A stretch of 35,029 nt of DNA from the NCBI GenBank assembly GCA_015233155.1, contig JADFYG010000006.1, positions 1 to 35,029 on the forward strand. Reading direction: 5' to 3'. A program made the position numbers and the translations under genes. The stretch's first letter is position 1, and the number at the start of each line of letters is the position of its first letter. The notes beneath the pieces were generated by a model that made no database searches, was not told where the DNA came from, and saw nothing but the letters and a program-made list of their open reading frames with translations. Shown here piece by piece: positions 13,295 to 33,232 of this stretch. The DNA comes from Candidatus Rifleibacteriota bacterium. GTDB taxonomy: Bacteria > Muiribacteriota > Ozemobacteria > Ozemobacterales > Ozemobacteraceae.

Positions 13295-13381
13295 TGAAAA
13301 TGCATCTCAAGCAAAATCCTGAAAATATGGAGCAGGCTGACTGATCGACTTCGATAGCTAATGAGATTGGTGTAACTATTG

Positions 13382-16300
13382 ATGACTGATCCAGAAGGCG
13401 TAAACAGCAGACGGATAATGCCGCGTTTTCTGTTGTTAACGCTTATTCTCAGTGTTTTGCCTTTCTTCCTGTTGTCGGCGGACGTCAAAAACGCACGACG
13501 ACTGCAAATGGAAGATGCGAAGTGCCGCCGCCTCGAAGAGATCAGACAAATTGGTGCGCGATTTCCGGAAATCACGACTCCCGGTTTTTGGGCGGAAGAA
13601 ACGTCGCGTCGTCTGAAAAAACGTGTTGAAAAGGCATTGAGTGGTGTTCCGAGCACACCGGAACGGCTGGCCGCCGCATTTGACGCATCTCTCGAAGCAG
13701 CTCACCCGACGGGTATAAGGGGTGGGCGACTGTGGGCGACATTCCTCCCGGACCAGCGGCTCGATACCCCCGGAACGCTTCTTTCAGGCAAGCGCCTGGA
13801 ATCGAAGTTGCGCTTGATTTTATCCCAGCTCCTGCATGATCTGACCCGCGATTATCTCCATCTGCCGAGTGATCTGGACAACAAGATCATCATCGACCGA
13901 TTGAAAGGCATCTTCGGAGAAGGTGCGTCACGTAAGCTTTTTTCTCGTGAGCAACGAGGAAAGGCTTTCTATACTATTTTCCAGGGGGAATTCGGCATCG
14001 CGGTCTGGGATGTCGTCATGGATCGTGGCCGACCGATCGGCACGTTCCTGCTTATTCTTCCGACAGACGATCAGGCATATCAAACCGCGTGCAACGCTGC
14101 ACTTCTCAACTGGCGCACGCTTTTTCCCGGTGAACGGGTGTGGCCGGCGTTCATTCCCTTTCGTGTTTCCCCTAAAGATGACGGTGCTCCACCAGTATTA
14201 CATCAGGACGTCGCAAAATTTGCCCAGGCTCGTCGCATAGCCCGGCGTTTGCAGCGTGAGATGCACATTATTGTTCGGCGAGGAAATACGCTGGCAACAG
14301 CAGAGCGAAGCGAAAGTCCGTCGACCGGTTTTCCGCTGGCGCCGACATATCGTCTTCTGGAGCCGTTTTCTGATGGTTCATGGTGGGGGTTACCTTGTCG
14401 GGCCGCTCCACTTGCCGGAGGTATCGGTCTTTTACTGACTCCGGCGCCGCACATTGTTCCTATGTTTTCAGAGCGCCTTGCGAGGGTCTACGGACTTATA
14501 CTGGCTATTTTTTGGACATTATTCCCGGTCTGGGTCGCGACCGGTGGACGTATGTCGACGCCAGGTGTTCGCATGACACTTCTTCTATGGTTCGCGGGTC
14601 TTGCCGCGACGCCGGTTGCATTGATTATTGGCTCCGGCGACCGTTTGCAACTGGATCTGACATCGAATTTGCGTGATCGTCTCGATCATGTGATTTCCTC
14701 CACCTTACAAAAAATAGATGCGGAAAGCGCCCGGATCGATGTGAAATTCGCCCAGTCGTGTCGTTCGATGATTCAAATCCCTGATCTTGGAGAGAGGATA
14801 GAGCGCAGCCGGGAACATCCGGATGAAGGTCGTGCGATTCTGAGTGATCTATGGCGGATGTGCCCCCCGGAAATGTCCGTACAGGGAATTATGATCTTTG
14901 GCTACGGTAGTTATGCTCTCACCCGCTTTGCTCCTGATACGAACCCCGCAGAAACTTCGATTACAGCGTGGTACTGTCAGGGAATTGCCGGTGATTATCT
15001 TCGGAGTCTCAACCCAGTACTCGCTGCAGAATGCGACAAAAAGCAGACCAGGGTGTCATCCGCAGCCAGACTCAGTCAGGTTGGATTGCTCAACAAGAAT
15101 AAGAGTTTTCTCAAGGGGCCTGATACTGTAGAAATTTGGACCGCGGGCACCACTCAGCTGCTTCGTTATTTCAACGTGATACGGCGCGGCGGCAGGTGCG
15201 AATATGCCATTATGGTAATCTGGAATCAGGATGAAGCGTATGAACCGTATTTGCGGAAAGCGCTTCGTCGGACTGTTCGTGAGCGCGGCGGAATCGCTCT
15301 CGCCGCTTTCAAGGTGACCTCTGATGGGCGTGAACTCGTAGCTCGTGCAGGCAATTCCAACCACCTTGCTTTGATGGCACAAAGGCTTAAGCCGTGGGGA
15401 CTGCCATTAGAGGCCGATGGATTGCAGATGTCGCTGATACCATTGCAGAAAATGACGGGTTTTCAGCTTGCCGCCGTCGCTCCTCTTGACTCCATGAATG
15501 CCAGAATTGCCGCAGAACACGCTCGTTCGCTGGTATCTCTCGCAATTTTGGCAATACTGATTATTGGTGGAGCTATTTTGCTCTCACGGCGCCTGGCGTC
15601 GCCGATCGTGCATATGACGGATGCGCTGGTACGTATTTCCGCCGACAATCTCGATGGCGGCATTGACGTTGGACGATGCGACGAACTTGGCGACGCGGCC
15701 CGAAAGTTGGACGTGATGACCGCGCGTCTGCGGGAACGACGCATGATGAGTCGTTTCGTCGCACCGCAGGTGCGCGATGTCGTCGCACAGGGTGATCTGG
15801 ACAAGGCATGCGAGGGAACCGAACGCCACGTCGCATTGCTCGTTTCAGATGTAAGAAATTTCACGACAATGTCTGAGGTCCATTCGCCGAAAGCGATATT
15901 CGATCTCATCAACGAACATCTGAAAATCATGACGACCGTCATTCAAAGACATGGTGGGGCTGTCGACCGGTTCATTGGTGATGCCGTCCAGGCAGTATTT
16001 TACCCTGGTTCGGGTGTGTCTATGGTCATTCGGGCATTGCGCGCCGCCCGGGAAATGATGGACGCCCACCGTGATTTAAACGAGAAACGTCGTTCATCAG
16101 GACTCTTCGAATACGATATTGGCGTCGGGGTCGAGCTCGGAACGGTAGTAACGGGTGTCATCGGCGATCCTGAAGTGCGTCTCGATTTTACAGTTCTCGG
16201 TGAACCGATGAAACACTGCGCGGATCTTGAGGGGGCGTCAAAATTCGGCCGTGCCACGCGCATAGTCTGTTCCGCGGAAGTGCGCGAGTCGGCGCGTGAA

Positions 16301-19300
16301 GCATTTTCTTTCATTCCCCTTGTTGATCCCGAACATCGGGATGCATGGGAGATGACTTTCGATGAGTCTTTCAATGAGGAATCGCGTGGAGGAGTTCCTG
16401 AGAATGCCGATATTCTTGAAGGAACCGGTATGCCTGCTGGAGAATCGAGAGAGAGTCGCTTTGCGTTTGATACTGGGTCAGATAGCGGACATTTCGATTC
16501 GGACAAAGCATACCGCGCTCCCACGTGGGATACGGTTTCGGAAAACTATGAAAGTCATATCAGATCTGGTGCGGCATCTTCCATTGGCTTTGCCGGCGTG
16601 TTTGCTCTGCTCATCTTTTGGATGCTTCCCGTGTTTCTTATTGGCTTCGCTTTTCACTCACTTGAAACCGGAGAAATACAGCGTATACAACGGGATATCA
16701 GAGCGAAACTGGAAGATGATCGCAAGAGGGCTGAAGCGGGCCTGGAGCCTCGAAATCAGATTTCCCTCGAGCTGTTCCACCGGTTGAATCGTATTTCTTC
16801 TAAAATCAGAAGTCTGCCGGATGATGTTCTGGCGGCTCATCCAAGTATTCTTCCATCGGTCATCATAAAGCCCGGCATATCCTTGTCTGTCCCCATAGCA
16901 CAATCTTCCGTGCGCTCCGATGTTATGCTTGCCCGTTACGATCTGCATGCCGCTGCCTGTGCCGAAATGAAGAGAATAGCCGGCCATTTGGCGTCACCCT
17001 CCTGGTATCTGTTCGGGCATTGTGCTGAGCGCGAATGGCTTGCCAGACAACCCAGTGTGGAAAGTGTTGTATTAGTTGCATCCGGCGGTCTTCCCGTCGC
17101 TTCCGAACTGACGGACGACGTTGCAAAATGCCTGTTCGCAAAGCTGAAGACGTATCTTCTCAAGATATATTTTCCATCTGCCCTTGATTTGATTGACTCG
17201 GTTCTCGGAAGCCGGGTCGGGGATGTATATTACGATGCGATGGGCCAGCTGAGCCAGATCAGCGCGTTAGGAAGACCGCGATGTTTGTTTTGGATACCCA
17301 TCTTTGATCCCTCGTTCCAGTCGACGTTTGAACAAGAGAGTAAATTGCGGGGAAGCAGGTTTTTCGATGCATATGGTTGGATGCGACGTTATCTTATCGG
17401 TGGAATTGTCTTGTTCATCGAACCGGCAGCGTTGACCCCGGAAAACGGCCGTCGTGCATTGGTCGAGAACCTTGCAGCTGCTGGTTGCGTGGCGGCAGTG
17501 CAGCCTCTCATTTCCGGAAGTCGAGCCATGGTTCATAGGAAATTCAGGATTGACCGCGAGTTGCGTGCGCGCTTTCTGGGAAATTTTGTCAAAGATTCCA
17601 GGCACCGTTGGGAAACAGTTGAAACAGTTGTTCCCGGTCGCCCGTCCGTTCGAATCCTGATTGCACGGAGGTCAGGCAGCCAGGATAACCCGTTTCCGCG
17701 GGGAAGAGCCGTGCTTGAATTTATCGCGGCAGTCTGGGTCTGTGCCGGTCTATATGGTGCATTTGTTCTGGGGCTGCTCAGTCGTCCATTTGCATTCAGT
17801 TTGCGTGGTCAGCTTGTGACTGCATTTCTGTTTGTACTGGTTCCCGCACTTGTTCTGGGAATGTTTGCCGTAGAGCGCTCTTCATGCGAAAAAAGTGACC
17901 GGCTCGAAATGGATCAGCGGCGTTTGCTCATGGAAACCCTTTCCTCGGCGGAAGAAACCTATCATCTTTATCTATCCTGGTCCTGTGCTATTCTCGATCA
18001 TATCGTCATGAAGCAGAAGTTTATTTCTTATATCATCAGAAACGAAACTATGAACGAACAGGATGCGAATCGCATCGGTCCGAAAATTATGTCAGTGCTC
18101 ATGAAAGCCTGCCTGCACAACGGTGTGTTCCTGAATCGTCCCATGATAAGCGACACTGGCCGCCTGTGCTTGCTTTATCAGGACTCCAAATCTCAGCGCA
18201 AACCAGGATTCATGGAAAAGGGTTTACGTTCATTTATAGTCACTGCTTTGGAATCTTTGAAAGGCTCTTCCGGCAGGACGCCAGATGGATTGGGACAAAA
18301 GAAGTTGAGCGATAAACTGGTTCTGGGATTCGGCCTTGAAGAATTTATGAGACTGGTCTTGTCCTTCTCTGCCCCAAATTCCATCATGGAGCTTATGTTG
18401 TCACCACGTGCACTGAATTTTGTTAAAAGGCTGGATGATCAATCCTTTTTCTACCACCGCTTTTTATCCGATAAGCATGGTCCCAGATACGGGCTCTTCT
18501 CCACCATGAATATGGATATTATCAATTACCTTTTGCTGAATTGCTGGACTATATCCAGACAATCTAGTGGCTCAAGCCAATCAGTTCTTGGTTATGGTTT
18601 CAGAAAAAGTCCGGGAGTCACGCTCACGCGCCCTTATGGAGTGTTTCACAATGATGAGCATGATTATGAGTTCGATTACCGTTTTATTCCACAAGCTCCA
18701 GATCTGGCGGAGGGTGTTTTTTGGGCGTCGTTTGCGGATGCTCCGATTTTTTTAGACCGAAAAAGTGGGAAGCGGAGAGAGCTGGTTCTATGCGTGCCGC
18801 CCAAGGCCATGCCGGATTCAATTCTGACGGCCCAGGTTCCGATCGGCCTCAAAATGGAGGAACAAGCGTCTGATGCTACCGAAAAGCGAAATGTGCTCGC
18901 CTGGCTATTGCTTGCCGCCGCTGTGCTGGCCATGCAAGTGGCCGGTGAGTTTCTCAAGCCCGTGAAAGAGCTTTCGGAAAAAGCCGGAATGATCACGGCC
19001 GGACGATTTGATGCCCGATTGTCTGAATGGCGAGGGGGGGAATTCGGCATCCTGGCACGTGCATTTAATGCGATGGCGACAGGTGTCTCCGAGGGGAAAC
19101 TGTTGAGTCGTTTTGTGTCCAAGTCGGTGCGTGATGCGGCTGGCGATGCCGGGCGTGAGGAGGCGGCAAGCCGTGGGGAACAAAGAGATGTCACGATATT
19201 GTTCGCGGGACTGGCGGATTTCAAAGCGTTGCTCGCGCACACTTCTCCGGACGTGTTGATCCGCCTGTTGAATCAGTATCTGCAAGTCATGTCGCGTGGG

Positions 19301-19804
19301 ATTCGAGCGCATGGCGGTGAAATAGACAAGTTTATCGGGGACAAGATCCTTGCCGTCTTCCACAACGATGCGCTTGGCGGTCGTGACGCGGCGGCCACGG
19401 CAGCAGTGGAAGCGGCCTTGCGCATGCGTCACGACCATGAGCATTTACAACGGCAACTGCAGGGCATGCTTCCCAACCATCTAGGCATTGGCGTGGTGAG
19501 CGGAGCGGTACTTGCCGGTATAATGGGAACTCCCGATGTCAGGCTCGAATACACGGTCATAGGTGACACGGTGAATCTGGCGTCACGCTTGGGCGACCTT
19601 GCCTTGCGTGTCGATGAAGCGGGCGCGGTGTGGCCTGATACGACGGATTGCGTGGGTGCAGTGATCGTGGAGTCCGTTGTTGCGGCGGCGTTTGCAAAAT
19701 CGCAAGAAATGCCGGCACGCGATTGCCTGCGGAAACTTGAATTGCCGCCGATCAAGGGTAAAACCCGATCGGTCGAGGCTTTCGTGGTATTATCGAATGC
19801 ATGA
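13382..19804 (+). CDS. Giant dual-cyclase receptor 1: two HAMP-linked class III cyclase domains
   Basis: 2140 aa membrane receptor predicted to make cyclic nucleotide, probably cAMP. Half 1: TM1 about 15-33, sensor, TM2 about 369-390, TM3 about 398-420, second sensor, TM4 about 717-737, HAMP about 738-790 (ending DELGDAARKLDVM), cyclase domain 1 about 815-1000. Half 2: TM5 about 1068-1093, sensor, TM6 about 1443-1468, TM7 about 1477-1500, second sensor, TM8 about 1837-1855, HAMP about 1856-1908 (GGEFGILARAFNAM), cyclase domain 2 about 1932-2110. Domain 1 keeps metal Asp823 and Asp867 but has Arg863 for the adenine Lys, and Lys944/Asp948 for the catalytic Asn/Arg. Domain 2 has Gly1943 for the first metal Asp but keeps Lys1983, Asp1987, Thr2058, Asn2065 and Arg2069. 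One composite active site is inferred. The start is ATG 13382; the TTG just before it is not conserved in copy 3. Confidence 0.88.
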   Translation: MTDPEGVNSRRIMPRFLLLTLILSVLPFFLLSADVKNARRLQMEDAKCRRLEEIRQIGARFPEITTPGFWAEETSRRLKKRVEKALSGVPSTPERLAAAFDASLEAAHPTGIRGGRLWATFLPDQRLDTPGTLLSGKRLESKLRLILSQLLHDLTRDYLHLPSDLDNKIIIDRLKGIFGEGASRKLFSREQRGKAFYTIFQGEFGIAVWDVVMDRGRPIGTFLLILPTDDQAYQTACNAALLNWRTLFPGERVWPAFIPFRVSPKDDGAPPVLHQDVAKFAQARRIARRLQREMHIIVRRGNTLATAERSESPSTGFPLAPTYRLLEPFSDGSWWGLPCRAAPLAGGIGLLLTPAPHIVPMFSERLARVYGLILAIFWTLFPVWVATGGRMSTPGVRMTLLLWFAGLAATPVALIIGSGDRLQLDLTSNLRDRLDHVISSTLQKIDAESARIDVKFAQSCRSMIQIPDLGERIERSREHPDEGRAILSDLWRMCPPEMSVQGIMIFGYGSYALTRFAPDTNPAETSITAWYCQGIAGDYLRSLNPVLAAECDKKQTRVSSAARLSQVGLLNKNKSFLKGPDTVEIWTAGTTQLLRYFNVIRRGGRCEYAIMVIWNQDEAYEPYLRKALRRTVRERGGIALAAFKVTSDGRELVARAGNSNHLALMAQRLKPWGLPLEADGLQMSLIPLQKMTGFQLAAVAPLDSMNARIAAEHARSLVSLAILAILIIGGAILLSRRLASPIVHMTDALVRISADNLDGGIDVGRCDELGDAARKLDVMTARLRERRMMSRFVAPQVRDVVAQGDLDKACEGTERHVALLVSDVRNFTTMSEVHSPKAIFDLINEHLKIMTTVIQRHGGAVDRFIGDAVQAVFYPGSGVSMVIRALRAAREMMDAHRDLNEKRRSSGLFEYDIGVGVELGTVVTGVIGDPEVRLDFTVLGEPMKHCADLEGASKFGRATRIVCSAEVRESAREAFSFIPLVDPEHRDAWEMTFDESFNEESRGGVPENADILEGTGMPAGESRESRFAFDTGSDSGHFDSDKAYRAPTWDTVSENYESHIRSGAASSIGFAGVFALLIFWMLPVFLIGFAFHSLETGEIQRIQRDIRAKLEDDRKRAEAGLEPRNQISLELFHRLNRISSKIRSLPDDVLAAHPSILPSVIIKPGISLSVPIAQSSVRSDVMLARYDLHAAACAEMKRIAGHLASPSWYLFGHCAEREWLARQPSVESVVLVASGGLPVASELTDDVAKCLFAKLKTYLLKIYFPSALDLIDSVLGSRVGDVYYDAMGQLSQISALGRPRCLFWIPIFDPSFQSTFEQESKLRGSRFFDAYGWMRRYLIGGIVLFIEPAALTPENGRRALVENLAAAGCVAAVQPLISGSRAMVHRKFRIDRELRARFLGNFVKDSRHRWETVETVVPGRPSVRILIARRSGSQDNPFPRGRAVLEFIAAVWVCAGLYGAFVLGLLSRPFAFSLRGQLVTAFLFVLVPALVLGMFAVERSSCEKSDRLEMDQRRLLMETLSSAEETYHLYLSWSCAILDHIVMKQKFISYIIRNETMNEQDANRIGPKIMSVLMKACLHNGVFLNRPMISDTGRLCLLYQDSKSQRKPGFMEKGLRSFIVTALESLKGSSGRTPDGLGQKKLSDKLVLGFGLEEFMRLVLSFSAPNSIMELMLSPRALNFVKRLDDQSFFYHRFLSDKHGPRYGLFSTMNMDIINYLLLNCWTISRQSSGSSQSVLGYGFRKSPGVTLTRPYGVFHNDEHDYEFDYRFIPQAPDLAEGVFWASFADAPIFLDRKSGKRRELVLCVPPKAMPDSILTAQVPIGLKMEEQASDATEKRNVLAWLLLAAAVLAMQVAGEFLKPVKELSEKAGMITAGRFDARLSEWRGGEFGILARAFNAMATGVSEGKLLSRFVSKSVRDAAGDAGREEAASRGEQRDVTILFAGLADFKALLAHTSPDVLIRLLNQYLQVMSRGIRAHGGEIDKFIGDKILAVFHNDALGGRDAAATAAVEAALRMRHDHEHLQRQLQGMLPNHLGIGVVSGAVLAGIMGTPDVRLEYTVIGDTVNLASRLGDLALRVDEAGAVWPDTTDCVGAVIVESVVAAAFAKSQEMPARDCLRKLELPPIKGKTRSVEAFVVLSNA

Positions 19805-19907
19805 ACTGGTATAACGATTTGTATATGACGTATCAAAGATCACTTGTGCCTCGAATTTACATGACATGCAGCTGCTATATATCTGAAAAACTAAAATTGT
19901 CTCCTCA

Positions 19908-19937
19908 TTGACATGTTAAATCGCGACAGAATATCAG
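19908..19937 (+). promoter_or_regulatory. Candidate promoter for the second cyclase gene
   Basis: A perfect -35 box TTGACA (19908-19913) is followed after 18 bases by TATCAG (19932-19937), a 4-of-6 match to the -10 consensus. The gene starts about 20 bases downstream. If real, copy 2 has its own promoter in addition to possible read-through from copy 1. The sigma-70 assignment is by eye. Confidence 0.35.
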
Positions 19938-19957
19938 TGAGATTGGTGTAACTATTG

Positions 19958-22900
19958 ATGACTGATCCGGAAAGCGTAAGCAACAGCAGGGGGATAATGC
20001 CGGGTTTTCTGTTATTAACACTGATTCTCACTGCTTTGCCTTTCTTCCTGCTGTCGGCCGATGTCAAAGACGCGCGACGACTGCAAATGGAAGATGCGAA
20101 GCGCCGCCGCCTCGAAGAGATCAGACAAATTGGTGCGCGATTTCCGGAAATCACGACTCCCGGCTTTTGGGCGGAAGAAACTTCGCGTCGCTTGAGACGA
20201 CGTGTCGAGAAGGCTATGGACGGTGTTCCGAACACGCCGGAGCGTCTCGCCGCCGCATTTGATGCATCATTGAAAGCTGCTCACCCGGCGGGAATAACTG
20301 GTGGCCGGTTGTGGGCAACGTTCCTCCCGGACCAGCGACTCGATACCCCCGGAACGCTTCTTTCAGGCAGACACCTGGAATCCAGGTTGCGCTTTATTTT
20401 ATCCCAGCTTCTGCATGATCTGACCCGCGATTATCTGCATCTGCCGAGTGATCTGGATTCCGGCGTCATTATCGACCGATTGAAGGGCATCTTCGGTGTG
20501 GGTTCGTCGCGTAAACTTTTTTCTCGTGAACAACGAGGAAAGGCTTTCAACGTTATTTTCCAGGGAGAATTCGGCATCGCGGTCTGGAATATCGTAATGG
20601 GGCGTGAGCGGCCGATAGGCACGTTTCTGCTGATTCTTCCGACGGACGATCAGGGTTATCAAACCGCCTTAAATGCGGCCTTTCGCAACTGGCGCACGCT
20701 TTTTCCCGGAGAACGGGTGCGTCCTGCGTTCATTCCCTTTCGCGTTTCCCCTCTCGACGTCGGAGCGCCTCCGGTAATACATTCGGATATAGGGAAATTA
20801 ACTTCACCCCGCCGCATTGCCAGACGCTTGCAAAAGGAGATGCGCATCGTTGTCCGACGAAGTCCTTCTCCGATCAGTTATCCTTTGCCTGAATTACTGC
20901 AGAATGGTTTTCCGATGGTGCCGACACGTAGTCTTCTGGAGCCGATTTCTGATGGCCCATGGTGGGGATTACCTTGTCGGATTGCACCGTTGTCCGGAGG
21001 CGTCGGTCTGTTACTGACTCCTGCGCCGCATATTGTTCCTATGTTTGCAGAGCGTCTCGCGAAGGCCTATGGCTTTCTGCTGGCGTTTTTCTGGACATTG
21101 TTCCCGGTATGGATTGCGACCGGAGGACGTCCACCGACACCAGGTGTGCGTCTTACGCTTCTTCTCTGGTTCGCCGGGCTTGCCGCAACGCCGGTGGCAT
21201 TGATTATTGGTTCCGGAGATCGTTTACAGCTGGATCTGACATCGAATCTTCGTGATCGACTCGATCGCGTGATCTCCTCCACCTTACAAAAAATAGATGC
21301 GGGAAGCACTCGTATCGATGTGAAGTTTGCCCAATCGTGTCGTTCGATGGTCCGTATCCCGGATCTCGGGGAACGCATCGAGCGTAGCCGGACGCATCCG
21401 GATGAAGGACGAGTAATTCTGAATGATCTGTGGTGCATGTGTCCGCCGGAAATGGCCGTTCAAGGCATTATGATATTTGGCCACGGTGGTTATGCTCTCA
21501 CTCGCTTTTCTCATGCTATGAACCCCGAAGAGGCTTCGACTACTGCCTGGTATAGCCAAGGGGTGGCCGGGGATTATCTGCGCAACCTCGATCCAGTACT
21601 CGCGGCAGAATACGACAAAAAGCAGACCAGAATGTCTTCCGCTTCCAAACTTGGTCAAATTGGATTACTCGGCAGGAACAGGAGTCTTCTCAAGGGTCTT
21701 GATAATGTGGATATTTGGACCACAGGCACCACTCAACTGCTTCGTTACTTCAATTCGATCCGTCGTGGCGGCAAGAGCGAATATGCCATTATGGTCGTCT
21801 GGAATCAGGATGAGGCCTATGGCCCGTATTTGCGGGAAGCACTTCGTCGAGCCATACGGGAACGCGGCGGAGTTGCTATCGCTGCTTTCAAAGTGACTTC
21901 GGATGGACGTGAAATCGTTGCCCGCGCAGGCAATCCCAATCACCTCGCTCTGATGGCGCAGCGGCTTGAGCCATGGGGGCTGCCATTAGAGGCGGATGGC
22001 TTGAGGATGTCGCTGATGCCAATGCAAAAAATGGCGGGTTTTCAGCTTGCCGCCGCAGCCTCTCTCGATCCGCTTAATGCCAGGATTGGTGTCGAACGCG
22101 CACGTTCGATGTTATCTCTCACTATTTTGGCAATACTGATTATCGGAGGAGCTATTTTGCTTTCACGGCGCCTGGCGTCGCCGATTATGCACATGACCGA
22201 TGCGTTGGTGCGTATTTCCGACGATAATCTCGATGGCAGGATTGACGTAGGACGATGCGACGAACTTGGTGACGCGGCCCGAAAGTTGGACGTGATGACC
22301 GCGCGTTTGCGCGAACGACGCATGATGAGCCGTTTCGTCGCGCCGCAGGTGCGTGATGTCGTCGCACAGGGTGATCTGGACAAAGCATGCGAGGGAACCG
22401 AACGTCACGTGGCATTGCTCGTCTCGGATGTAAGAAACTTCACGACAATGTCCGAGGCCTACTCGCCGAAAGCGATATTCGATCTCATCAACGAACATCT
22501 GAAAATCATGACGACGGTTATTCAGAGACATGGAGGAGCTGTCGATCGGTTTATTGGTGATGCTATCCAGGCAGTATTTTACCCTGGTCCGGGTGTGTCT
22601 ATGGTCATTCGGGCTCTGCGCACCGCCCGGGAAATGATGGAAGCCCACCATGATTTAAACGAGAAACGACGTTCATCAGGGCTCTGCGAATACAGGATCG
22701 GCGTCGGAGTTGAGCTTGGAACAGTCGTAACAGGTGTAATCGGTGATCCGGAAGTGCGTCTCGATTTTACAGTTCTTGGTGAACCGATGAAGCACTGCGC
22801 GGATCTTGAGGGAGCGTCAAAATTCGGCCGTGCCACGCACATCGTTTGTTCCCCGGAAGTGCGCGAGTCGGCGGGGGACGCCTTTTGCTTCATTCCCATT

Positions 22901-25900: not shown

Positions 25901-26389
25901 ATCGACAAGTTTATCGGAGACAAGATCCTTGCAGTTTTCCACAACGATACGCTCGGCGGGCGTGACGTGGCGGCTTCGGCGGCGGTGGAAGCAGCCATTC
26001 GAATGCGCCGCGACCATGAGCATTTACAGAGGCAACTGCAGGGCATTCTTCCCAATCATCTCGGCATTGGCGTGGTGAGCGGTACAGTGTTGGCTGGTAT
26101 CATGGGGACTCCGGATGTCAGGCTTGAATACACGGTCATAGGCGACACTGTGAATCTGGCGTCACGCCTGGAAGATCTTGCCGTGCGTATTGATGAAGAA
26201 GGCGTGGTATGTGCTGATACGGCTGACTGCGTTGGCGCTGTACTTGTGGAGTCCATTGTTGCGGCGGCGTTTGCAGAAACGCATGAAACTCTGGCACGCG
26301 ATTGCCTGCGGAAACTTGAATTGCCGCCGATCAAGGGTAAAACCCGATCGGTCGAGGCTTTCGTGGTATTATCGAACGTAGATAAATGA
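19958..26389 (+). CDS. Giant dual-cyclase receptor 2: two HAMP-linked class III cyclase domains
   Basis: 2143 aa paralogue of the preceding gene, alignable end to end by eye with the same eight TM segments, two HAMP domains and two cyclase domains. Domain 1: metal Asp824 and Asp868 kept, Arg864 in place of the adenine Lys, Lys945/Asp949 in place of the catalytic Asn/Arg. Domain 2: Gly1944 in place of the first metal Asp; Lys1984, Asp1988, Asn2066 and Arg2070 kept. The linker after cyclase 1 includes a GGGCGAGG/CCTCGCCC palindrome translated as part of AGEVCLAPT. The 5' end (from about 31 bases around the start) and the last 84 bases up to nearly the stop are almost or fully identical to copy 1, while sensors and linkers differ, which suggests gene conversion or different selection. 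The start is ATG 19958, with the conserved GGTGT element upstream. Confidence 0.88.
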   Translation: MTDPESVSNSRGIMPGFLLLTLILTALPFFLLSADVKDARRLQMEDAKRRRLEEIRQIGARFPEITTPGFWAEETSRRLRRRVEKAMDGVPNTPERLAAAFDASLKAAHPAGITGGRLWATFLPDQRLDTPGTLLSGRHLESRLRFILSQLLHDLTRDYLHLPSDLDSGVIIDRLKGIFGVGSSRKLFSREQRGKAFNVIFQGEFGIAVWNIVMGRERPIGTFLLILPTDDQGYQTALNAAFRNWRTLFPGERVRPAFIPFRVSPLDVGAPPVIHSDIGKLTSPRRIARRLQKEMRIVVRRSPSPISYPLPELLQNGFPMVPTRSLLEPISDGPWWGLPCRIAPLSGGVGLLLTPAPHIVPMFAERLAKAYGFLLAFFWTLFPVWIATGGRPPTPGVRLTLLLWFAGLAATPVALIIGSGDRLQLDLTSNLRDRLDRVISSTLQKIDAGSTRIDVKFAQSCRSMVRIPDLGERIERSRTHPDEGRVILNDLWCMCPPEMAVQGIMIFGHGGYALTRFSHAMNPEEASTTAWYSQGVAGDYLRNLDPVLAAEYDKKQTRMSSASKLGQIGLLGRNRSLLKGLDNVDIWTTGTTQLLRYFNSIRRGGKSEYAIMVVWNQDEAYGPYLREALRRAIRERGGVAIAAFKVTSDGREIVARAGNPNHLALMAQRLEPWGLPLEADGLRMSLMPMQKMAGFQLAAAASLDPLNARIGVERARSMLSLTILAILIIGGAILLSRRLASPIMHMTDALVRISDDNLDGRIDVGRCDELGDAARKLDVMTARLRERRMMSRFVAPQVRDVVAQGDLDKACEGTERHVALLVSDVRNFTTMSEAYSPKAIFDLINEHLKIMTTVIQRHGGAVDRFIGDAIQAVFYPGPGVSMVIRALRTAREMMEAHHDLNEKRRSSGLCEYRIGVGVELGTVVTGVIGDPEVRLDFTVLGEPMKHCADLEGASKFGRATHIVCSPEVRESAGDAFCFIPISDPDHRDAWEMSYDVASNGGLHENVHEKLNIREGRKFPVEGSSDNNSGLVTKSEVDHFKAGEVCLAPTQEISFEKYENNISHGASPTTGFVGVFAMLVFWMLPVFLLGFAFRSFEVGEIQRGHRDLRLKLEEDLRKAESGLDPRNQISLELFRRFNRLSYKIRNLPADVLAASPDIQASVIADRGVSLSVPIAASSVRADVLLARDSMKSAVSAEMKEIADRIASPSWYLFEHCAEREWLARQPSLENTVLVASGGVCVDPRMTDDLVKYLLANLKTCLLKLRNLPAIDWFESRSGIRAGEVFYDAMGQLRQILTFGRSQYLLWVPIFDPSFRATFERESSATESRLFDVYDLMRRYLIGGIVLFVDPAVLTAENGRRALIENLAPTGCVAAVQPLIPGSRAMVHRKFRLDRELHARFLGNFTKDSRHRWETIETVVPGRPSVRILIARRSVNQDNPFPRVRAVLELIAGAWFCAGLYGVFVLGLLGRPFAFSLRGQLGGAFLFVLVPALVLGMFAVERSSYEKSDRLEIDQRRLLMETLSSAEEIYHLYLSWSCTILDHLVTRPKFLSFIIRSENMNEQDGNRIGRKTMSVFMKACLHNGVFLNRPMISGTGHLCLIMQGDGMEAKPGFMENGFRSFIAVALASLKGSSSKISDGSGQKSLNDKIVLGIGMEEFMKLVWSFAAPDSIMELMISPRTLNFIKRLGDQSFFYRRFLPGKNGPGYGFVSTMNTDALNYLLLNRWNTFRRADETALPLLGFGFRKGLGVTLTSPYKRVFKNWDGYMFDSCLMPQAPDIAQSIFWASFADATIFLNRKSGKQRELLLCGPSKAMADSFLTAMVPIGRYIEEQASEAAARMNVLVLLLLSAAVLAMHVAGEFLKPVKELSEKAGMITAGRFEARLPEWRGGEFGVLARAFNAMAAGVSEGKLLSRFVSESVRHAAGDIRREEAANRGEHKEVTVLFAGLADFQSLLAETPPDELIRVLNRYLQVMSRAIRAHGGEIDKFIGDKILAVFHNDTLGGRDVAASAAVEAAIRMRRDHEHLQRQLQGILPNHLGIGVVSGTVLAGIMGTPDVRLEYTVIGDTVNLASRLEDLAVRIDEEGVVCADTADCVGAVLVESIVAAAFAETHETLARDCLRKLELPPIKGKTRSVEAFVVLSNVDK
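23080..23099. repeat. GC palindrome inside the cyclase 2 reading frame
   Basis: GGGCGAGG (23080-23087) and CCTCGCCC (23092-23099) are perfect inverted repeats with a 4-base loop, lying in the divergent linker between cyclase domain 1 and TM5. It resembles the intergenic GGGGCG-type palindromes at 11236-11256 and 26421-26442. Copy 3 has a decayed version (GCGGGCGAGGAATGTCTCAT, from about 29571) and copy 1 a shorter, diverged equivalent (near 16501-16525). Confidence 0.6.
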
Positions 26390-26488
26390 TATCAGTGACA
26401 CAATATCCGTGCGCAGTTGCGGGCGACCCATCGGGGCCGCCCCTGCGGCATAATTCCGAACGACTTTTTATGAATGGTGTGACGATTT
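26390..26488. other. Short gap with GC-rich palindrome between cyclases 2 and 3
   Basis: This 99-bp gap contains GGGCGACCC (26421-26429) and GGGCCGCCC (26434-26442), inverted repeats with one mismatch, in a sequence resembling the GGGGCG-type palindromes elsewhere in the window. No T-run follows, so it is not an obvious terminator. Just before the next gene is GGTGTGACG, matching GGTGTAACT before copies 1 and 2, probably part of the conserved translation start region. Confidence 0.5.
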
Positions 26489-29400
26489 ATGGCTGATTCT
26501 GAAAGCATGAACCGTTCACGGTTGAATCCGCGGTTTCTGGTGCTGACGCTGATTCTAAGCGTGTTGCCGTTCTTATTATTGTTGATGGATGTCAATGATG
26601 CGCGGCGACTGCAAACGGAGGATGTTAAGCGGCGCCGTTTGGCGGAAATCAGGCAGATTGGCGCGCGATTCCCGAAAATCACTACGCCCGTTTTTTGGGC
26701 GGAAGAAATGGCGCGTCGTTTGAGAGCCCGTGTTGAAAAGACAATGAGGGATGTTCCAATCACCCCGGAGCGGCTTGCCGCTGCATTCGACACGTCCTGG
26801 GACGGCGCTCATCCGGCGGGTATAACGGGGGGACGGCTTTGGGCGATGTTTTTTCCGGATAACCAGCTCGACATTACCGTGCCCCTTCTTGTTGGAAAGC
26901 GTCTGGAATCAACGACTGGCTGGCTATTTTCACATCTTTTGAATGGCCTGATCCGCGACTATCTGCATCTGACGAGTGAGCTGGATGTCAGTGATTTCGT
27001 GAGCAGATACAGAAATATTTTCGGGGCAGGCACGTCACGAAAACTTCTTTCTCGCGATCAGTGCGGAACGGCTTTCAACGTCATTTATCAGGGAGAATTC
27101 GGCATCGCCGTCTGGAACGTGATCATGGGGAGAAACCGTCCGATCGGCATCTTTCTGATGATTATTCCGACTGGCGATCAGGCTTATCAGACTGCGCGGA
27201 ACGCTGCTATTCTCAACTGGCATACACTTTTTCCCGGAGTCCGGGTACGTCCGGGATTCATTCCCTTCCGTGTTTCTCCCGCCGATGTCGGTGCTCCTCC
27301 GGTTTTACATTCCGACGTCGCAAAATTTCCGTCTGCCCGGCGTATTGCACGATGTCTGCAAAGTGAGATGCGAATTGCTGTCCGACGGGGCAGTCCGGCG
27401 ACCGGCTTTCCGCTTATGCCGACATACCGGCTGCTTGAACCTGTTTCCGATGGTCCGTGGTGGGGACTGCCTTGTCAGATGGCTCCGCTGAGCGGGGGCA
27501 TAGGTCTTTTACTTACGCCTGCACCGCATATCGTTCCTATGTTTTCGGAGCATCTCGCGAAGATCTACGGATTTCTGCTGGCGGTTTTCTGGCCATGTTT
27601 TCTGGCATGGATTGCGACCGGAAGACCCTTGCCGACACCCGGTGTTCGCATGACACTTCTTCTCTGGTTCGCCGGTCTCGCCGCGACTCCGGTGGCTTTG
27701 ATTATCGGCTCCGGGGATCGTTTACAGCTCGATCTGGCATCTAATCTCCGCGACCGACTCGACCGCGTGATCTCCTCCACTTTGCAAAAAATAGATACGG
27801 GAAGTGTCCGTATCGACATGAAGTTCGCCCAGATCTGTCGCTCCATGGTGCGCTTGCCGCGTCTTGGAGAGCGCATTCAGCGGAGCCGGGAGCATCCGGA
27901 TGAAGGCAACAAAATTCTGAATGATCTCTGGCGCATGTGTCCGCCGGAAATGTCCGTTCAGGGTATTATGATCTTTGGCCACGGAAGCTATGCTCTCACC
28001 CGCTTTTCGCCGGATATGAACTCCGATGTGGCTTCGACCTCTGAGTGGTACAGTCAGGGGATCGCCGGGGATTTTCTGCGCAGAGTCGATCCGGTACTCG
28101 CGAAAGAGTATGATAAAAAGCAGACCAGAGTATCTTCAGCGACCAAACTGGGTCAGATTGGATTACTAGACAAGAATAAAGGGCTTCTGGGCCACCCCAA
28201 TACTGTTGATATCTGGTCTACGGGTACCACTAAGCTGCTCAGATATTTCAACCTGATCCGACGTGGCGGCAACAGTGAATATGCCATTATGGTCATCTGG
28301 AATCAGGATAAGGCTTATGTTCCATATTTGCAGAAAGCACTTCTCAGGGCCGTTCATGAACGAGGAGGAATCGCTCTGGCCGCCTTCAGGATAAATTCCG
28401 AAAGGCGTGAACTTGTATTTCGGGCGGGGAATTCCAATCATCTTGCCCTGATGGCTCGCCGTCTCGCCGCATGGGGACTTCCATCAGAGGCTGATGGAAT
28501 GAGGATGTCTCTGGTGGCGACTCAAAAAATTTCCGGTTTTCAGCTTGCTGCGGTTGCTCCACTCGGACCGCTTAATGCGAGAATTAGTGCTGAGCGCGCT
28601 CATTCGATTTTTTCTCTTGTCCTTCTTGCAATTCTGATTGCAGGCGGAGCTGCACTGCTTTCACAGCGTCTTGCGTTGCCGATCATGAGTATGACTGAGG
28701 CGCTGGTATGTATTTCCGCCGACAACCTTGATGTCAGTATAGATGAAGGTCGGGGCGACGAACTCGGCGACGCGGCCCGCAAGCTGGACGCGATGACGGC
28801 TCGTCTGCGGGAACGGCGTATGATGAGCCGTTTCGTCGCCCCGCAAGTGCGCGATGTCGTAGCCCAGGGTGATCTTGATAAGGCATGTGTGGGAACCGAG
28901 CGTCACGTGGCATTGCTTGTCTCGGATGTAAGAAGCTTTACTGCGATGTCTGAGTCTTATCCTCCAAAAGCTATATTTGACCTTCTCAACGAACATCTGA
29001 AAATCATGACAACTGTTATTCAGAAGCATGGGGGGGCTGTCGACCGGTTTATCGGAGACGCCATTCAGGCCGTTTTTTACCCCGGTTCAGGCGAATCCAT
29101 GGTCATCCGGGCTCTGAGTGCCGCCAGGGAAATGATGGAAGCCCACACTGGTTTCAGCGAAAAGCGTCGTTCCATGGGACTTTTTGAGTACAGGATCGGC
29201 GTCGGAGTTGAGCTCGGAACAGTTGTAACAGGTGTCATCGGCGATCCGGAAGTTCGTCTGGATTTTACAGTTCTCGGTGAACCGATGAAACACTGCGCGG
29301 AGCTGGAGGGGGCGTCTAAATTCGGCCGCGCAACGCGCATCATTTGTTCCCCGGAAGTACGCGAGTCGGCTGGCGCATCCTTTTCCTTCATTCCGGCTGT

Positions 29401-32400
29401 TGATCCCGACCATCAGAATGCATGGGAAATTTCTTCCGATGAATCTTGCGGCGATGAGTTGCATGAAAATGGTTCCGCAAGTGTTCTCGAAGATGTGAAT
29501 ATTCATGAAAGAATGAATATTGCGGCGAAAGAATTGAACGGGAATAATTCTGGTAAGAACGACCTCAATGCGGGCGAGGAATGTCTCATTCCTGCACGGG
29601 AAAGCAACAGCATTCGTGGCGCGTCATCTTCGATCGGCTTTATCCGCATTTTTTTTCTGCTCATTTTCTGGATGCTTCCGGTTTTCCTGATATGTTTTGT
29701 TTTTCACTCACTTGAAGTTGGCGAAATAGAGCGCGGGCTTCGGGATATCAGAGCAAAATTGGAAGAGGATCGCAAGAAGGCTGAGGCGGGCCAGGAGCCT
29801 CAGAATCAGATTTCCCTCGACTTGTTTCATCGTCTTAATCGTTTTTCTTCTAAAATCCAAAGCTTGCCGGCAGATGTTCTTGCTGCTCCTCTGGACATGC
29901 AGGCTTCCGTCATCTCCGGTTCGCGCTTATCACCGTCCAGCCCCATCGCAACAGATGCCGTGCGTTCGGACGTTCTAGTGGCACGTGGGAGCCTGCGTGA
30001 TGCGGCATGTGCCGAAATGCAGCGGATATCCCGTCGTTTTGCATCTCCCTCCTGGTACCTGTTCGAGCAATGTTCTGAACGCGAATGGCTTGCCAGTCAA
30101 CCCAGTGTTGAAAGCAGTGTAATGGTTGCATCCGGTGGCATTCCCGTCGATTCACGCTTTACAGACGAATTTGCAAAATGCCTGTTTGCAAGGCTAAAGA
30201 CGTTTATGCTCAAAACTAATGATAAACTCGCTTGCGATTATTATGAGAGTTCGATAGAACCCGACACGGGACTTCGGTCAATCGAGGATGGTTTCATCGA
30301 TGCAATGGGACAACTGGCCCAGATTTCTCCCTTCGGCAAATCGCAATGTTTGATCTGGATTCCCATCATGGATCCTCTGTTCCGGACGGAATTTGAGCGC
30401 GAGAGTGCGAAGACCGGAAGTAAGATTTTCGATGAGCGTCTCATGATGCGGCGTTATCTTATCGGTGGAATTGTCTTATTCATCGATCCCGCGTTACTGA
30501 CACCGGATAATGGCTGGCGTTCCCTGATTGCAAACCTTGCCGCTACTGGCTGTGTAGCGGCTGTGCAGCCCCTTACTCCGGGAAGTCGCGCCATTGTTAA
30601 TCGCAAATTCCGGCTTGACCACGAGCTGCATGCGCGTTTTCTCGAACAGCATTCCAGGGATTCCATGCATCATTGGGAAACCATTGAAACAATAGCTCTG
30701 GGTCGTCCGTCAGTTCGAATGATTCTTGCGCGGCGGTCAGACAATCAGGATAATCCATTTCCAAGGGTAAAGGCCGTGTTGGAGATTCTTGCCGGAGCAT
30801 GGTTCTGTGCGGGATTATGTGCCGCTTTTTTCCTGGGTTTGCTCGGTCGTCCTTTTGCGTTCAGTCTGCGTGGTCAGCTCGGGGGCGCATTTCTGTTTGT
30901 AATGGTTCCGGCTCTTGCGCTTGGAATGATCGCAGTGGAGCGTTCTCTATGTGAAAAGAGTGAAAGGATCGAGATAGACCAGCGACGCCTGCTTATGGAA
31001 ACGGTTTCCGCTGCGGAGGAATCCAGCCACATGTATTTATCCTGTTTCTGTTCCATCCTGGATCATCTTATCATGAATCCGAAGTTTATTTCTGTTATAG
31101 GCAGAATCGAAGCCATGAAGGAACGGGATGCGGATCGCGCATGCCGGAATATAATGTCACTGTTCATGAAAGCCTGCCTGCACAACGGCGTATTCCTGAA
31201 TCGCCCCATGATAAGCGGTATCGGTAATCTGTGTCTGATTTTTGAAGGCTTCAAGCCTCCACCCAGCGCAATATTCATAGAAAAGGGGTTCAGTACATTT
31301 ATTGCCCTTGCCTTGGAATCTCTGAAAGGCTCGTCAGCCAATATTTCCGTTACCGCAGAAAAAAAAGGGGCGGGCGAGAAACTGTTAATGGGATTCGTTC
31401 TGGAAGAATTTTCCAAGCTGTTTTTATCTTTCACGGCCCCGGACTCCGTCATGGACCTGATGTTGGCCCCAAAAGCCTTGAATTATGTAAAAAATCTGGT
31501 CGATCAATCATTTTTCTATCGTCGATTTTTACCCGGACCAGACGGTCCCAGATATGGGTTTGTCTCCACTTTGAGTATGGAAGGTCTCAATTACCTGATT
31601 CTCAATCGTTGGACTATGCCCAGACAGAGTGGCGCCATGGTTATGCCCGTAATTGGTTTCGGTTACAAAGAATCGCCGGCTATTACGCTCACGCGTCCCT
31701 ACAGAAGTTTTCGGGGCAGAGAAGAGAATGACTATCGATTCGAGGACCATGACATGCCTCAAGCCCCGGATATCGCGGAAAGCGTGTTTTGGGCGTCGTT
31801 TGCTGATGCTCCGATTTTTCTCAATCGAAAAAGCGGCAGGCAGAGAGAATTGATGCTATGCGCGCCGTCCAAGGCCATGTCCGATGCGATTCTGACAGCC
31901 GAGGTTCCGATCGGGCTTAAGATGGAGGGGCAGGCAGCCGATGCCGCCTACAGACGGAAAATACTTGCCTGGTTGTTGCTGGCTGCCGCGGTGCTTGCCT
32001 TACAGGTCGCCGGTGAGTTTCTCAAACCCGTGAAAGAGCTTTCAAAAAAAGCCGGCATGATCACAGCCGGCCGATTCGATGCCAGATTGCCTGAGTGGCG
32101 TGGCGGTGAGTTCGGCGTTCTGGCGCGCGCTTTTAACGCAATGGCTATCGGCATCTCCGAGGGGCGACTGCTGAGTCGTTTTGTGTCCGAATCCGTGCGC
32201 GATGCTGCCGTAGATATGAAGCGGGAAGAGGCTGCCAATCGCGGGGAACAAAGAGATGTCACCGTGTTGTTCGCCGGTCTGGCTGACTTCAAGTCGCTGC
32301 TGGTGAATACTCCTCCGGATGCGCTGATCCGGCTGCTGAATCGCTATCTGCAGGTCATGTCGCGGGCTATTCGCGCTAATGGCGGCGAAATAGACAAGTT

Positions 32401-32866
32401 TATCGGGGACAAGATTCTTGCGGTCTTCCACGACGATGCACTCGGCGGGCGCGATAAGGCTGCCGCGGCCGCAGTGGAAGCCGCCATTCGCATGCGCCGG
32501 GACCATGAGCATTTACAGCGACAACTGCAGGGTATCCTTCCCAATCATCTCGGCGTCGGCATAGTGACCGGAACGGTACTGGCCGGCATCATGGGAACTC
32601 CGGATGTCAGGCTTGAATACACGGTAATCGGGGACACGGTGAATCTGGCCTCACGTCTGGGAGATCTTGCCTTACGTATAGATGAATCAGGCATGGTGCG
32701 GCCTGATACAGACGATTGCGTAGGTGGGATTGTCGTGGAATCCTTGGCGGCGGCGGGTTTTGCAAAAACACATGAAACTTTGGCGCGTGATTATCTGCGC
32801 AAACTGGAGTTGCCGCCCATCAAGGGCAAAACCCGATCGGTCGAGGCTTTCGTAGTCTTGTCATGA
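26489..32866 (+). CDS. Giant dual-cyclase receptor 3: two HAMP-linked class III cyclase domains
   Basis: 2125 aa, the most diverged of the three paralogues but with the same order: TM-sensor-TM-TM-sensor-TM-HAMP-cyclase, twice. Domain 1: metal Asp813 and Asp857 kept, Arg853 in place of the adenine Lys, Lys934 in place of the catalytic Asn and Glu938 in place of the catalytic Arg (Asp in the other copies). Domain 2: Gly1930 in place of the first metal Asp; Lys1970, Asp1974, Thr2045, Asn2052 and Arg2056 kept. So the split pattern is conserved even where neighbouring residues drift. Indels relative to copies 1 and 2 fall in the sensors (e.g. a shorter stretch before GFPLMPTYRLLEP and an insertion before IDAMGQLAQI) and in the post-cyclase linker. 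The codon before ATG is TTT, not TTG, which supports ATG starts for all three. Confidence 0.88.
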   Translation: MADSESMNRSRLNPRFLVLTLILSVLPFLLLLMDVNDARRLQTEDVKRRRLAEIRQIGARFPKITTPVFWAEEMARRLRARVEKTMRDVPITPERLAAAFDTSWDGAHPAGITGGRLWAMFFPDNQLDITVPLLVGKRLESTTGWLFSHLLNGLIRDYLHLTSELDVSDFVSRYRNIFGAGTSRKLLSRDQCGTAFNVIYQGEFGIAVWNVIMGRNRPIGIFLMIIPTGDQAYQTARNAAILNWHTLFPGVRVRPGFIPFRVSPADVGAPPVLHSDVAKFPSARRIARCLQSEMRIAVRRGSPATGFPLMPTYRLLEPVSDGPWWGLPCQMAPLSGGIGLLLTPAPHIVPMFSEHLAKIYGFLLAVFWPCFLAWIATGRPLPTPGVRMTLLLWFAGLAATPVALIIGSGDRLQLDLASNLRDRLDRVISSTLQKIDTGSVRIDMKFAQICRSMVRLPRLGERIQRSREHPDEGNKILNDLWRMCPPEMSVQGIMIFGHGSYALTRFSPDMNSDVASTSEWYSQGIAGDFLRRVDPVLAKEYDKKQTRVSSATKLGQIGLLDKNKGLLGHPNTVDIWSTGTTKLLRYFNLIRRGGNSEYAIMVIWNQDKAYVPYLQKALLRAVHERGGIALAAFRINSERRELVFRAGNSNHLALMARRLAAWGLPSEADGMRMSLVATQKISGFQLAAVAPLGPLNARISAERAHSIFSLVLLAILIAGGAALLSQRLALPIMSMTEALVCISADNLDVSIDEGRGDELGDAARKLDAMTARLRERRMMSRFVAPQVRDVVAQGDLDKACVGTERHVALLVSDVRSFTAMSESYPPKAIFDLLNEHLKIMTTVIQKHGGAVDRFIGDAIQAVFYPGSGESMVIRALSAAREMMEAHTGFSEKRRSMGLFEYRIGVGVELGTVVTGVIGDPEVRLDFTVLGEPMKHCAELEGASKFGRATRIICSPEVRESAGASFSFIPAVDPDHQNAWEISSDESCGDELHENGSASVLEDVNIHERMNIAAKELNGNNSGKNDLNAGEECLIPARESNSIRGASSSIGFIRIFFLLIFWMLPVFLICFVFHSLEVGEIERGLRDIRAKLEEDRKKAEAGQEPQNQISLDLFHRLNRFSSKIQSLPADVLAAPLDMQASVISGSRLSPSSPIATDAVRSDVLVARGSLRDAACAEMQRISRRFASPSWYLFEQCSEREWLASQPSVESSVMVASGGIPVDSRFTDEFAKCLFARLKTFMLKTNDKLACDYYESSIEPDTGLRSIEDGFIDAMGQLAQISPFGKSQCLIWIPIMDPLFRTEFERESAKTGSKIFDERLMMRRYLIGGIVLFIDPALLTPDNGWRSLIANLAATGCVAAVQPLTPGSRAIVNRKFRLDHELHARFLEQHSRDSMHHWETIETIALGRPSVRMILARRSDNQDNPFPRVKAVLEILAGAWFCAGLCAAFFLGLLGRPFAFSLRGQLGGAFLFVMVPALALGMIAVERSLCEKSERIEIDQRRLLMETVSAAEESSHMYLSCFCSILDHLIMNPKFISVIGRIEAMKERDADRACRNIMSLFMKACLHNGVFLNRPMISGIGNLCLIFEGFKPPPSAIFIEKGFSTFIALALESLKGSSANISVTAEKKGAGEKLLMGFVLEEFSKLFLSFTAPDSVMDLMLAPKALNYVKNLVDQSFFYRRFLPGPDGPRYGFVSTLSMEGLNYLILNRWTMPRQSGAMVMPVIGFGYKESPAITLTRPYRSFRGREENDYRFEDHDMPQAPDIAESVFWASFADAPIFLNRKSGRQRELMLCAPSKAMSDAILTAEVPIGLKMEGQAADAAYRRKILAWLLLAAAVLALQVAGEFLKPVKELSKKAGMITAGRFDARLPEWRGGEFGVLARAFNAMAIGISEGRLLSRFVSESVRDAAVDMKREEAANRGEQRDVTVLFAGLADFKSLLVNTPPDALIRLLNRYLQVMSRAIRANGGEIDKFIGDKILAVFHDDALGGRDKAAAAAVEAAIRMRRDHEHLQRQLQGILPNHLGVGIVTGTVLAGIMGTPDVRLEYTVIGDTVNLASRLGDLALRIDESGMVRPDTDDCVGGIVVESLAAAGFAKTHETLARDYLRKLELPPIKGKTRSVEAFVVLS

Positions 32867-33173: not shown

Positions 33174-33232
33174 CGTTTACCAATTAAAAGTATACTCCCG
33201 GTAGCTTTAGTATTTTTTGATGGAGGTTCTTG

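What the first reader, a model, noticed from the sequence alone, without database searches (positions are those of the whole stretch)
13382..32866. Bacterial receptors with a mammalian-type split C1/C2 cyclase active site
Seen in sequence: each of three giant proteins has two class III cyclase domains with complementary losses. Domain 1 keeps both metal Asp (823/867, 824/868, 813/857) but has Arg for the adenine-selecting Lys, Lys for the transition-state Asn and Asp/Glu for the transition-state Arg. Domain 2 has Gly for the first metal Asp (1943, 1944, 1930) but keeps Lys, Thr, Asn and Arg. Known: in mammalian transmembrane adenylyl cyclases C1 supplies the metal Asp and C2 supplies Lys, Asp, Asn and Arg, giving one productive site. 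Inference: these bacterial proteins form one composite ATP site per chain, and the partner site is dead and perhaps regulatory. Retention of the pattern in three diverged copies argues for function rather than decay. I know of no described bacterial TM-HAMP-C1-TM-HAMP-C2 receptor of this kind, but cannot search.
Basis: partly seen in the sequence, partly recalled or inferred. Interest (0 to 1): 0.93.

Follow-up and report, generated by a model that had tools for sequence, protein, structure and literature searches.

The report
Bacterial split-site C1/C2 cyclase receptors
Three giant bacterial membrane proteins each carry two cyclase domains that have lost opposite halves of the active site, so each chain is predicted to build one shared, likely cAMP-making site much as the membrane adenylyl cyclases of animals do, a fused two-domain form that a 2022 review called unknown in bacteria.

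Summary
Confirmed and extended. Nearest named relatives place the host in Riflebacteria (Ozemobacteraceae). Its genome has 43 class III cyclase domains: the 22 unpaired ones all keep both metal Asp, Asn and Arg; all 21 in fused or neighbouring pairs have losses, and in 10 of 10 complete pairs only the C1-Asp/C2-Lys-Asn-Arg site survives. The same holds in 59 of 59 fused receptors from the protein search (three of them from this genome), 18 of 18 fused proteins from other genomes of the phylum and 6 of 6 neighbouring gene pairs in relatives. A relative's C1-to-C2 segment is modelled as a docked pair that superposes on human sAC and AC9 (about 3 Å over more than 400 residues). The halves are homologous, and single, paired and fused forms coexist in one genome. 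Activity is untested. Soluble tandem cyclases also turned up, one named as bacterial, so this is a new variant: a membrane-receptor pseudoheterodimer. C2 never has a full metal pair; loss of Lys/Asn/Arg from C1 is graded.

The parts
13382..19804 (+). Receptor gene a, 2140 aa: TM - domain - TM-TM - CACHE-like domain - TM - HAMP - C1 - linker - same order again - HAMP - C2
   Evidence: half 1 modelled; half 2 by homology
19958..26389 (+). Receptor gene b, 2143 aa, same architecture, 77% identical to a
26489..32866 (+). Receptor gene c, 2125 aa, same architecture, about 70% identical to a
15824..16234 (+). C1 cyclase domain of a (keeps metal Asp823 and Asp867; Arg863, Lys944, Asp948 replace Lys, Asn, Arg)
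22403..22765 (+). C1 cyclase domain of b
28901..29308 (+). C1 cyclase domain of c
19181..19594 (+). C2 cyclase domain of a (Gly1943 replaces the first metal Asp; Lys1983, Thr2058, Asn2065, Arg2069 kept)
25757..26185 (+). C2 cyclase domain of b
32249..32662 (+). C2 cyclase domain of c
15602..15781 (+). HAMP1 and signalling helix of a, approximate limits
   Evidence: two HAMP stretches, only the better one placed; limits as used
18941..19084 (+). HAMP2 of a (residues 1855-1902 of P0001)
14645..15514 (+). Second extracytoplasmic domain of half 1 of a (residues 422-711), fold like LuxQ / double-CACHE sensor domains in the model
13433..18949 (+). Hydrophobic segments of a: about 19-37, 371-389, 400-418, 711-745 and 1075-1093, 1450-1468, 1471-1489, 1839-1857, that is four per half
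   Evidence: Kyte-Doolittle; in b the second segment falls under the threshold and one extra segment appears inside C2; helices 14-58, 362-386, 396-448, 703-753 in half 1 of a

Best explanation
Each protein is a fused pair of duplicated sensor-HAMP-cyclase receptors whose two cyclase domains are predicted to dock within one chain and form a single, likely ATP-cyclising site, with C1 supplying both metal aspartates and C2 supplying the base-selecting Lys/Thr and the transition-state Asn and Arg. Shown: the gene architecture, the exact and complementary residue losses, their fixation across the family, homology of the two halves, and the coexistence of single, neighbouring-pair and fused forms. 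Predicted from a model of a relative: C1 and C2 dock in the arrangement of human sAC and AC9. Inferred: HAMP1 and HAMP2 pair in the chain and rotate or shift when the two different extracytoplasmic sensor arms bind ligands, opening or closing the one site; the product is cAMP (Lys/Thr pair), read by the genome's cNMP-binding proteins; the opposite interface site lacks a metal Asp and is catalytically dead.
Against: No activity data. The window's own C1-C2 pair was too long to model; the docking model is of a relative at about 28% identity, with low overall pTM, and no distances or PAE were returned. Foldseek's own alignments of that model to whole AC9, AC5 and AC8 chains have rmsd 24-44 Å, and to sAC 4clf 6.5 Å over 250 columns and 4clt 57.8 Å; the close superposition comes from VIA-align alone, whose top three rows (whole AC9) have rmsd 7.1-7.4. 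In the second subfamily C1 is less degenerate (the second L094 protein has a complete C1, DKDSNR; L091, L093, L101, L103 keep Arg); L057's C1-type gene is fully intact; three of the 59 keep Asn and one keeps Arg in C1. C1-C1 homodimers could be active in such cases. P0103's C2 keeps the first Asp but has Asn for the second. Of 59 C2 domains 20 have Glu and one Asn at the second metal position. The sensors of the C122 pair follow gene order rather than catalytic type: its first gene (C2-type) matches half 1 better, its second (C1-type) half 2. Broken domains without a partner in view exist: L052 (2-532), L053, L055, L060, L061 and L065 on short contigs, a C1/C2 pair on overlapping frames in L042, and single-domain proteins P0136-P0139, P0085 and P0182 (domain cut short), whose neighbours I did not see. 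The gamma-phosphate Arg was not tabulated.
Confidence: 0.86

Rival explanations
1. The C1 and C2 domains pair between chains rather than within one: two giant receptors side by side form two composite sites, so the chain is an obligate dimer and not a self-contained pseudoheterodimer.
For: Class III cyclases and HAMP domains normally pair between chains (general knowledge); the neighbouring gene pairs must pair between chains.
Against: The single-chain model of L041 docks C1 on C2 within the chain, though a single-chain job cannot show pairing between chains. Fusion of previously separate partners is most simply read as fixing the pair in one chain. Composite-site chemistry is the same either way.
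Confidence: 0.15
2. The proteins are pseudo-enzymes: the cyclase pair binds nucleotide but no longer cyclises it, and signals through another output.
Against: One full set of catalytic residues is conserved in 59 of 59 and 18 of 18 fused proteins; pure pseudo-enzymes should lose both sets. dN/dS is low.
Confidence: 0.06
3. The composite site makes cGMP or another cyclic nucleotide rather than cAMP.
For: The base-selecting pair is Lys/Thr rather than Lys/Asp; 2w01, titled as guanylyl cyclase Cya2, is the closest solved sequence to C1 (where the molecule is labelled adenylate cyclase).
Against: Lys is kept in all 59 C2 domains; guanylyl cyclases use Glu with Cys or Ala (passage of PMC6592433). 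Bacterial Lys/Thr cyclases such as CyaC are adenylyl cyclases (recalled).
Confidence: 0.1

Closest known systems
Mammalian transmembrane adenylyl cyclases (ADCY1-9)
   Same: Two membrane halves in one chain, C1 with the metal aspartates and C2 with base-selecting and transition-state residues, one live and one dead site (division of residues stated in PMC4174876, passages seen).
   Different: About four hydrophobic segments per half with large extracytoplasmic sensor domains and HAMP, instead of six-helix bundles; Lys/Thr instead of Lys/Asp; about 2100 aa instead of 1065-1353 (PMC9552081, passages); nearest solved relatives of the domains are bacterial; a separate duplication is inferred, no animal sequence was put in the tree.
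Soluble adenylyl cyclase (ADCY10) and sAC-like tandem cyclases
   Same: Human sAC chains are among the best matches of the docked model (8co7 fourth by Z, after three whole AC9 chains).
   Different: Soluble, 23-94 aa between the two domains in these examples against 712-1152 in the fused receptors, with ATPase/TPR regions; separate clades in the tree (A1, A2). Chloroflexus sAC-like enzymes with two catalytic domains (Kobayashi 2004) are recalled; that paper is not held, only cited in PMC11006738 and PMC3085406 (passages).
Homodimeric bacterial receptor cyclases (Rv1625c/Cya; HAMP-cyclase receptors)
   Same: Membrane receptor with HAMP or helical transducer and class III domain; C151 in the same genome is a single-domain protein of this layout (DKDTNR, 1001 aa) homologous to both halves.
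   Different: One domain per chain, two equivalent active sites per homodimer.
Alveolate fused guanylyl cyclases (Toxoplasma)
   Same: Fused pseudoheterodimer with one live and one dead site (PMC6592433, passages seen).
   Different: Order inverted (second domain carries the metal Asp), GTP-selective, eukaryotic, fused to a P4-ATPase.

Membership tests
Class III nucleotide cyclase domain (PF00211) | Both domains match the family above its cut-off | tested here: met
   each of the six window domains over the cut-off on its own; all 43 listed matches in the genome over it
Mammalian-type membrane adenylyl cyclase (ADCY1-9) | C1 carries both metal Asp, C2 carries Lys, Asn and Arg, opposite set incomplete | tested here: met
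Mammalian-type membrane adenylyl cyclase (ADCY1-9) | C1 and C2 dock as one pseudoheterodimer | tested here: inconclusive
   Seen in the model of a relative by VIA-align but not in Foldseek's own alignments; not modelled for the window proteins, no distances available
Mammalian-type membrane adenylyl cyclase (ADCY1-9) | Two six-helix membrane domains | tested here: not met
   about four hydrophobic segments per half; helices 14-58, 362-386, 396-448, 703-753 in half 1
Mammalian-type membrane adenylyl cyclase (ADCY1-9) | Lys/Asp base-selecting pair | tested here: not met
   Thr in 59 of 59 C2 domains; Lys/Asp pair as in PMC6592433, passage
Mammalian-type membrane adenylyl cyclase (ADCY1-9) | G-protein regulation, forskolin site | not testable with these tools
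   Needs protein; GPCRs and G proteins are described as absent in bacteria (PMC9552081, section 4)
Soluble adenylyl cyclase (ADCY10-like) | Soluble tandem C1-C2 followed by ATPase/TPR region | tested here: not met
   HAMP and hydrophobic segments, about 940 aa between the domains, no ATPase/TPR Pfam match
HAMP sensor receptor | TM helix followed by HAMP before the output domain | tested here: met
   Two HAMP stretches per protein, protein score over the cut-off; hydrophobic segments just before them
CACHE / LuxQ-like ligand-binding domain | Fold of the second extracytoplasmic domain | tested here: inconclusive

The most novel reading that the evidence does not exclude
Riflebacteria separately evolved the animal design of a membrane adenylyl cyclase: a one-chain pseudoheterodimer with one live and one dead site, driven by two different sensor arms, with the dead site (fixed Arg in place of Lys, Thr/Ser kept on C1, no metal on C2) turned into a regulatory pocket as in the forskolin site. 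Every stage of the path (complete single receptor, neighbouring complementary genes, fused gene) still exists, all of them in this one genome, and a second unrelated gene pair (contig C96) has made the same move.
Probability: 0.5. Interest if true: 0.87.

Novelty: new variant of a known kind. Interest (0 to 1): 0.8.

Why it matters
[quoted passage not shown] This family answers the first point for membrane receptors and makes the second testable: related single, paired and fused receptors can be compared side by side. It also gives a bacterial view of how one of two equivalent active sites is given up after duplication, with graded intermediates (L057, the second subfamily, the window subfamily).

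Tried and rejected
Decay of duplicated domains: rejected (dN/dS 0.10-0.16; complementarity without exception in the tabulated pairs). Inheritance from the animal enzymes: not favoured; the closest solved domains are bacterial, but no animal sequence was put in the tree. One single ancestor for all C2-type domains: not seen in the tree (closest split lacks five S2 rows); I did not run the AU test, so one origin is not excluded. First extracytoplasmic domain (residues about 40-370): barely tested by the fold search, no match reported for it. NCBIfam matches all lie far under their cut-offs and fall on the TM/HAMP regions. Literature: ten searches; in the listings shown (one paper each, none, otherwise 4-20 titles and abstract starts of up to 553 papers) I saw no paper on a bacterial fused membrane cyclase; (Riflebacteria + adenylate cyclase) gave one paper, on magnetosomes. 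The library holds open-licence papers only.

Rows dropped: one search started from 77 proteins with two or more domain matches (of 179 with any); 59 with domains over 600 aa apart were counted; 18 were left out, 6 of them named by hand because the second match was weak in ATPase/TPR proteins (P0026, P0147, P0181, P0187, P0191, P0192), 12 as other tandem proteins with 23-365 aa between the domains: mostly sAC-like; P0041 keeps all catalytic positions but Thr in both domains, P0044's second domain keeps them too, P0048, P0077 and P0083 have lost Lys in C2, P0143 is eukaryotic. In 7 of the 59 C1 begins before residue 600, so the N-terminus is short or cut. P0003 (window c) was not among the 59; it obeys the rule. 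One search listed 120 of 230 hits. The tree used 25 of the 59, chosen by hand, and 37 of the 43 own-genome domains; six catalytic columns were removed and one long row (N_C107) dropped for the careful run. One search did not list all matches. In one search I took 20 stretches chosen by hand: mostly long open frames whose listed match covered C1 alone, one spanning both domains (L106) and two shorter frames of family f8; L108 and L109 (f8) are complete single-domain proteins, L107 shows C1 only, and cut pieces in L099, L102 and L104 were not counted.
Full report
Observation. The window carries three tandem genes for proteins of 2140, 2143 and 2125 aa. Each has two class III cyclase domains, all six over the Pfam cut-off, and two HAMP stretches. 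The register agrees with solved bacterial cyclases.

Host. The nearest named relatives belong to the phylum Riflebacteria, family Ozemobacteraceae; the window's genome itself is unnamed. It (G000, 6.3 Mb, 185 contigs, 84% complete) has 43 class III domains and 20 cNMP-binding matches, 19 of them over the cut-off.

A control inside the genome. Of the 43 domains, 22 stand alone and 21 sit in fused proteins or in neighbouring gene pairs (one of the 21 at a contig end, without its partner). All 22 unpaired domains keep both metal Asp, Asn and Arg, and 21 of 22 keep Lys. All 21 paired domains have lost at least one position. In 10 of 10 complete pairs the C1-type partner has both Asp, the C2-type partner has Lys, Asn and Arg, and the opposite set is broken. 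Six pairs are fused (three in the window, C149, C158, C108); four are separate neighbouring genes (two on C97, one on C122, one on C96).

Breadth. Of 77 database proteins with two or more cyclase matches, 59 have domains over 600 aa apart; two of these are window proteins and one is C158. In 59 of 59 site A (C1 Asp, Asp; C2 Lys, Asn, Arg) is intact and in 0 of 59 site B. No pair of the 59 reaches 90% identity over 600 aa. In an alignment of 18 fused proteins D823, R863, D867, K1983, T2058, N2065 and R2069 are invariant. In 39 genomes of the phylum, 24 match the fused profile at 1e-70: 22 of 24 in the window's family, 2 of 3 in family f8 and 0 of 12 elsewhere; many of these matches are to one domain only. 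Stretches taken from those genomes gave 18 fused proteins, 18 of 18 obeying the rule (overlap with the 59 not removed). Together with single matches that span both domains (10 genomes, by span, not residue-checked there), at least 20 of the 24 family genomes hold a fused gene. The two f8 matches that I took are complete single-domain proteins (DKDTNR; L108, L109).

Results that qualify the claim. In the second subfamily (C108-like) C1 usually keeps Lys, often Arg, and in the second L094 protein Asn as well, so what is constant is that C2 lacks a full metal pair: the first Asp is gone in all tabulated fused proteins but P0103, which keeps it and has Asn at the second position. In the pair on L057 the C1-type gene is fully intact. 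These look like intermediate stages, but they also mean that a C1 homodimer could work there. Some broken domains have no partner in view (fragments on short contigs; P0136-P0139, P0085, P0182); I did not see their neighbours.

Origin. Outside the cyclase domains the two halves are homologous (probability 99.84, E 3.4e-30, 630 columns, 12% identity), and the first and second C97 genes match half 1 and half 2 respectively best; C151, a complete single receptor of the same layout, matches both. The C122 pair is odd: the sensor of its first gene (C2-type) is nearer half 1 and that of its second (C1-type) nearer half 2, so sensor and catalytic type do not always travel together. In the tree without the catalytic columns, fused C1 plus paired C1 form one group (41 rows, support 100/93), fused C2 plus the C2 genes of C97, L051 and L054 another (35 rows, 98/94); the C2 genes of C122, L056, L057, L062 and L065 form a third (100/99); the C96 pair lies with two unpaired cyclases (100/98), and its sensors do not match the fused family, so complementary loss arose at least twice in this phylum. 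C1 and C2 distances correlate (r = 0.76, 0 of 2000 permutations, 31 proteins). On L100 a C1-type and a C2-type gene sit beside a fused gene, with a further C2 end upstream.

Mechanism. The best-supported reading is a one-chain receptor with two non-identical sensor arms, a HAMP1-HAMP2 pair and one composite active site; ligand binding on either arm would be integrated at one catalytic centre. Docking is predicted, ligand gating and cAMP product are inferred, chemistry is untested.

Known and new. PMC4174876 (passages) states the mammalian division of labour between C1 and C2. [quoted passage not shown] That sentence is too strong for soluble enzymes: sAC-like tandem proteins show the same complementarity, one of them named Anaerolineae, and I recall Chloroflexus examples (Kobayashi 2004, not held). 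For membrane receptors I saw nothing in the listings of the ten searches named under Tried and rejected. Hence a new variant of a known kind: it works like the animal membrane cyclases, but is not one of them (TM number, HAMP, Lys/Thr pair).

Noticed in passing
C1 of the window proteins, residues 863/864/853: Arg in place of the base-selecting Lys is found in 56 of 59 fused proteins although C1 no longer selects the base; with Thr/Ser kept nearby (56 of 59), the dead site may have gained a binding role.
   Followed up: partly
L100 2443-17499: A neighbouring C1/C2 gene pair lies next to a fused receptor gene on the same strand in one relative, with a further C2-type end upstream, as if fission or fusion were recent.
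   Followed up: partly
L033 (G000 C96): A second, unrelated gene pair grouped with unpaired cyclases shows the same complementary loss (DKDTND and TKETNR): a repeat of the event.
   Followed up: partly
L032 (G000 C122): C2-type gene comes first, and the sensors of the pair match the halves by gene order, not by catalytic type.
   Followed up: no
P0161, P0165, P0195, P0196, P0040, P0167: sAC-like soluble proteins with tandem C1-C2 and ATPase/TPR regions, also complementary; P0196 named Anaerolineae, the others without organism.
   Followed up: partly
P0169, P0171, P0178, P0179, P0193: Long proteins combining FtsX/MacB-type membrane domains, HAMP and a cyclase domain (P0169, P0171, P0178 checked: single, complete); a similar protein, P0177, is named Anaerolineae.
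   Followed up: no
window 13362-13392 and 19938-19968: Genes a and b share an identical 31-base stretch just upstream of and across the start codon, fitting a recent tandem duplication.
   Followed up: partly
window 562-8199: OEP, HlyD-type and AcrB-type efflux genes followed by an unassigned 552 aa protein (P0007, no Pfam match).
   Followed up: no
window 33230-35029: Start of a large surface-type protein with PKD and carboxypeptidase regulatory-like matches directly after the receptor genes.
   Followed up: no
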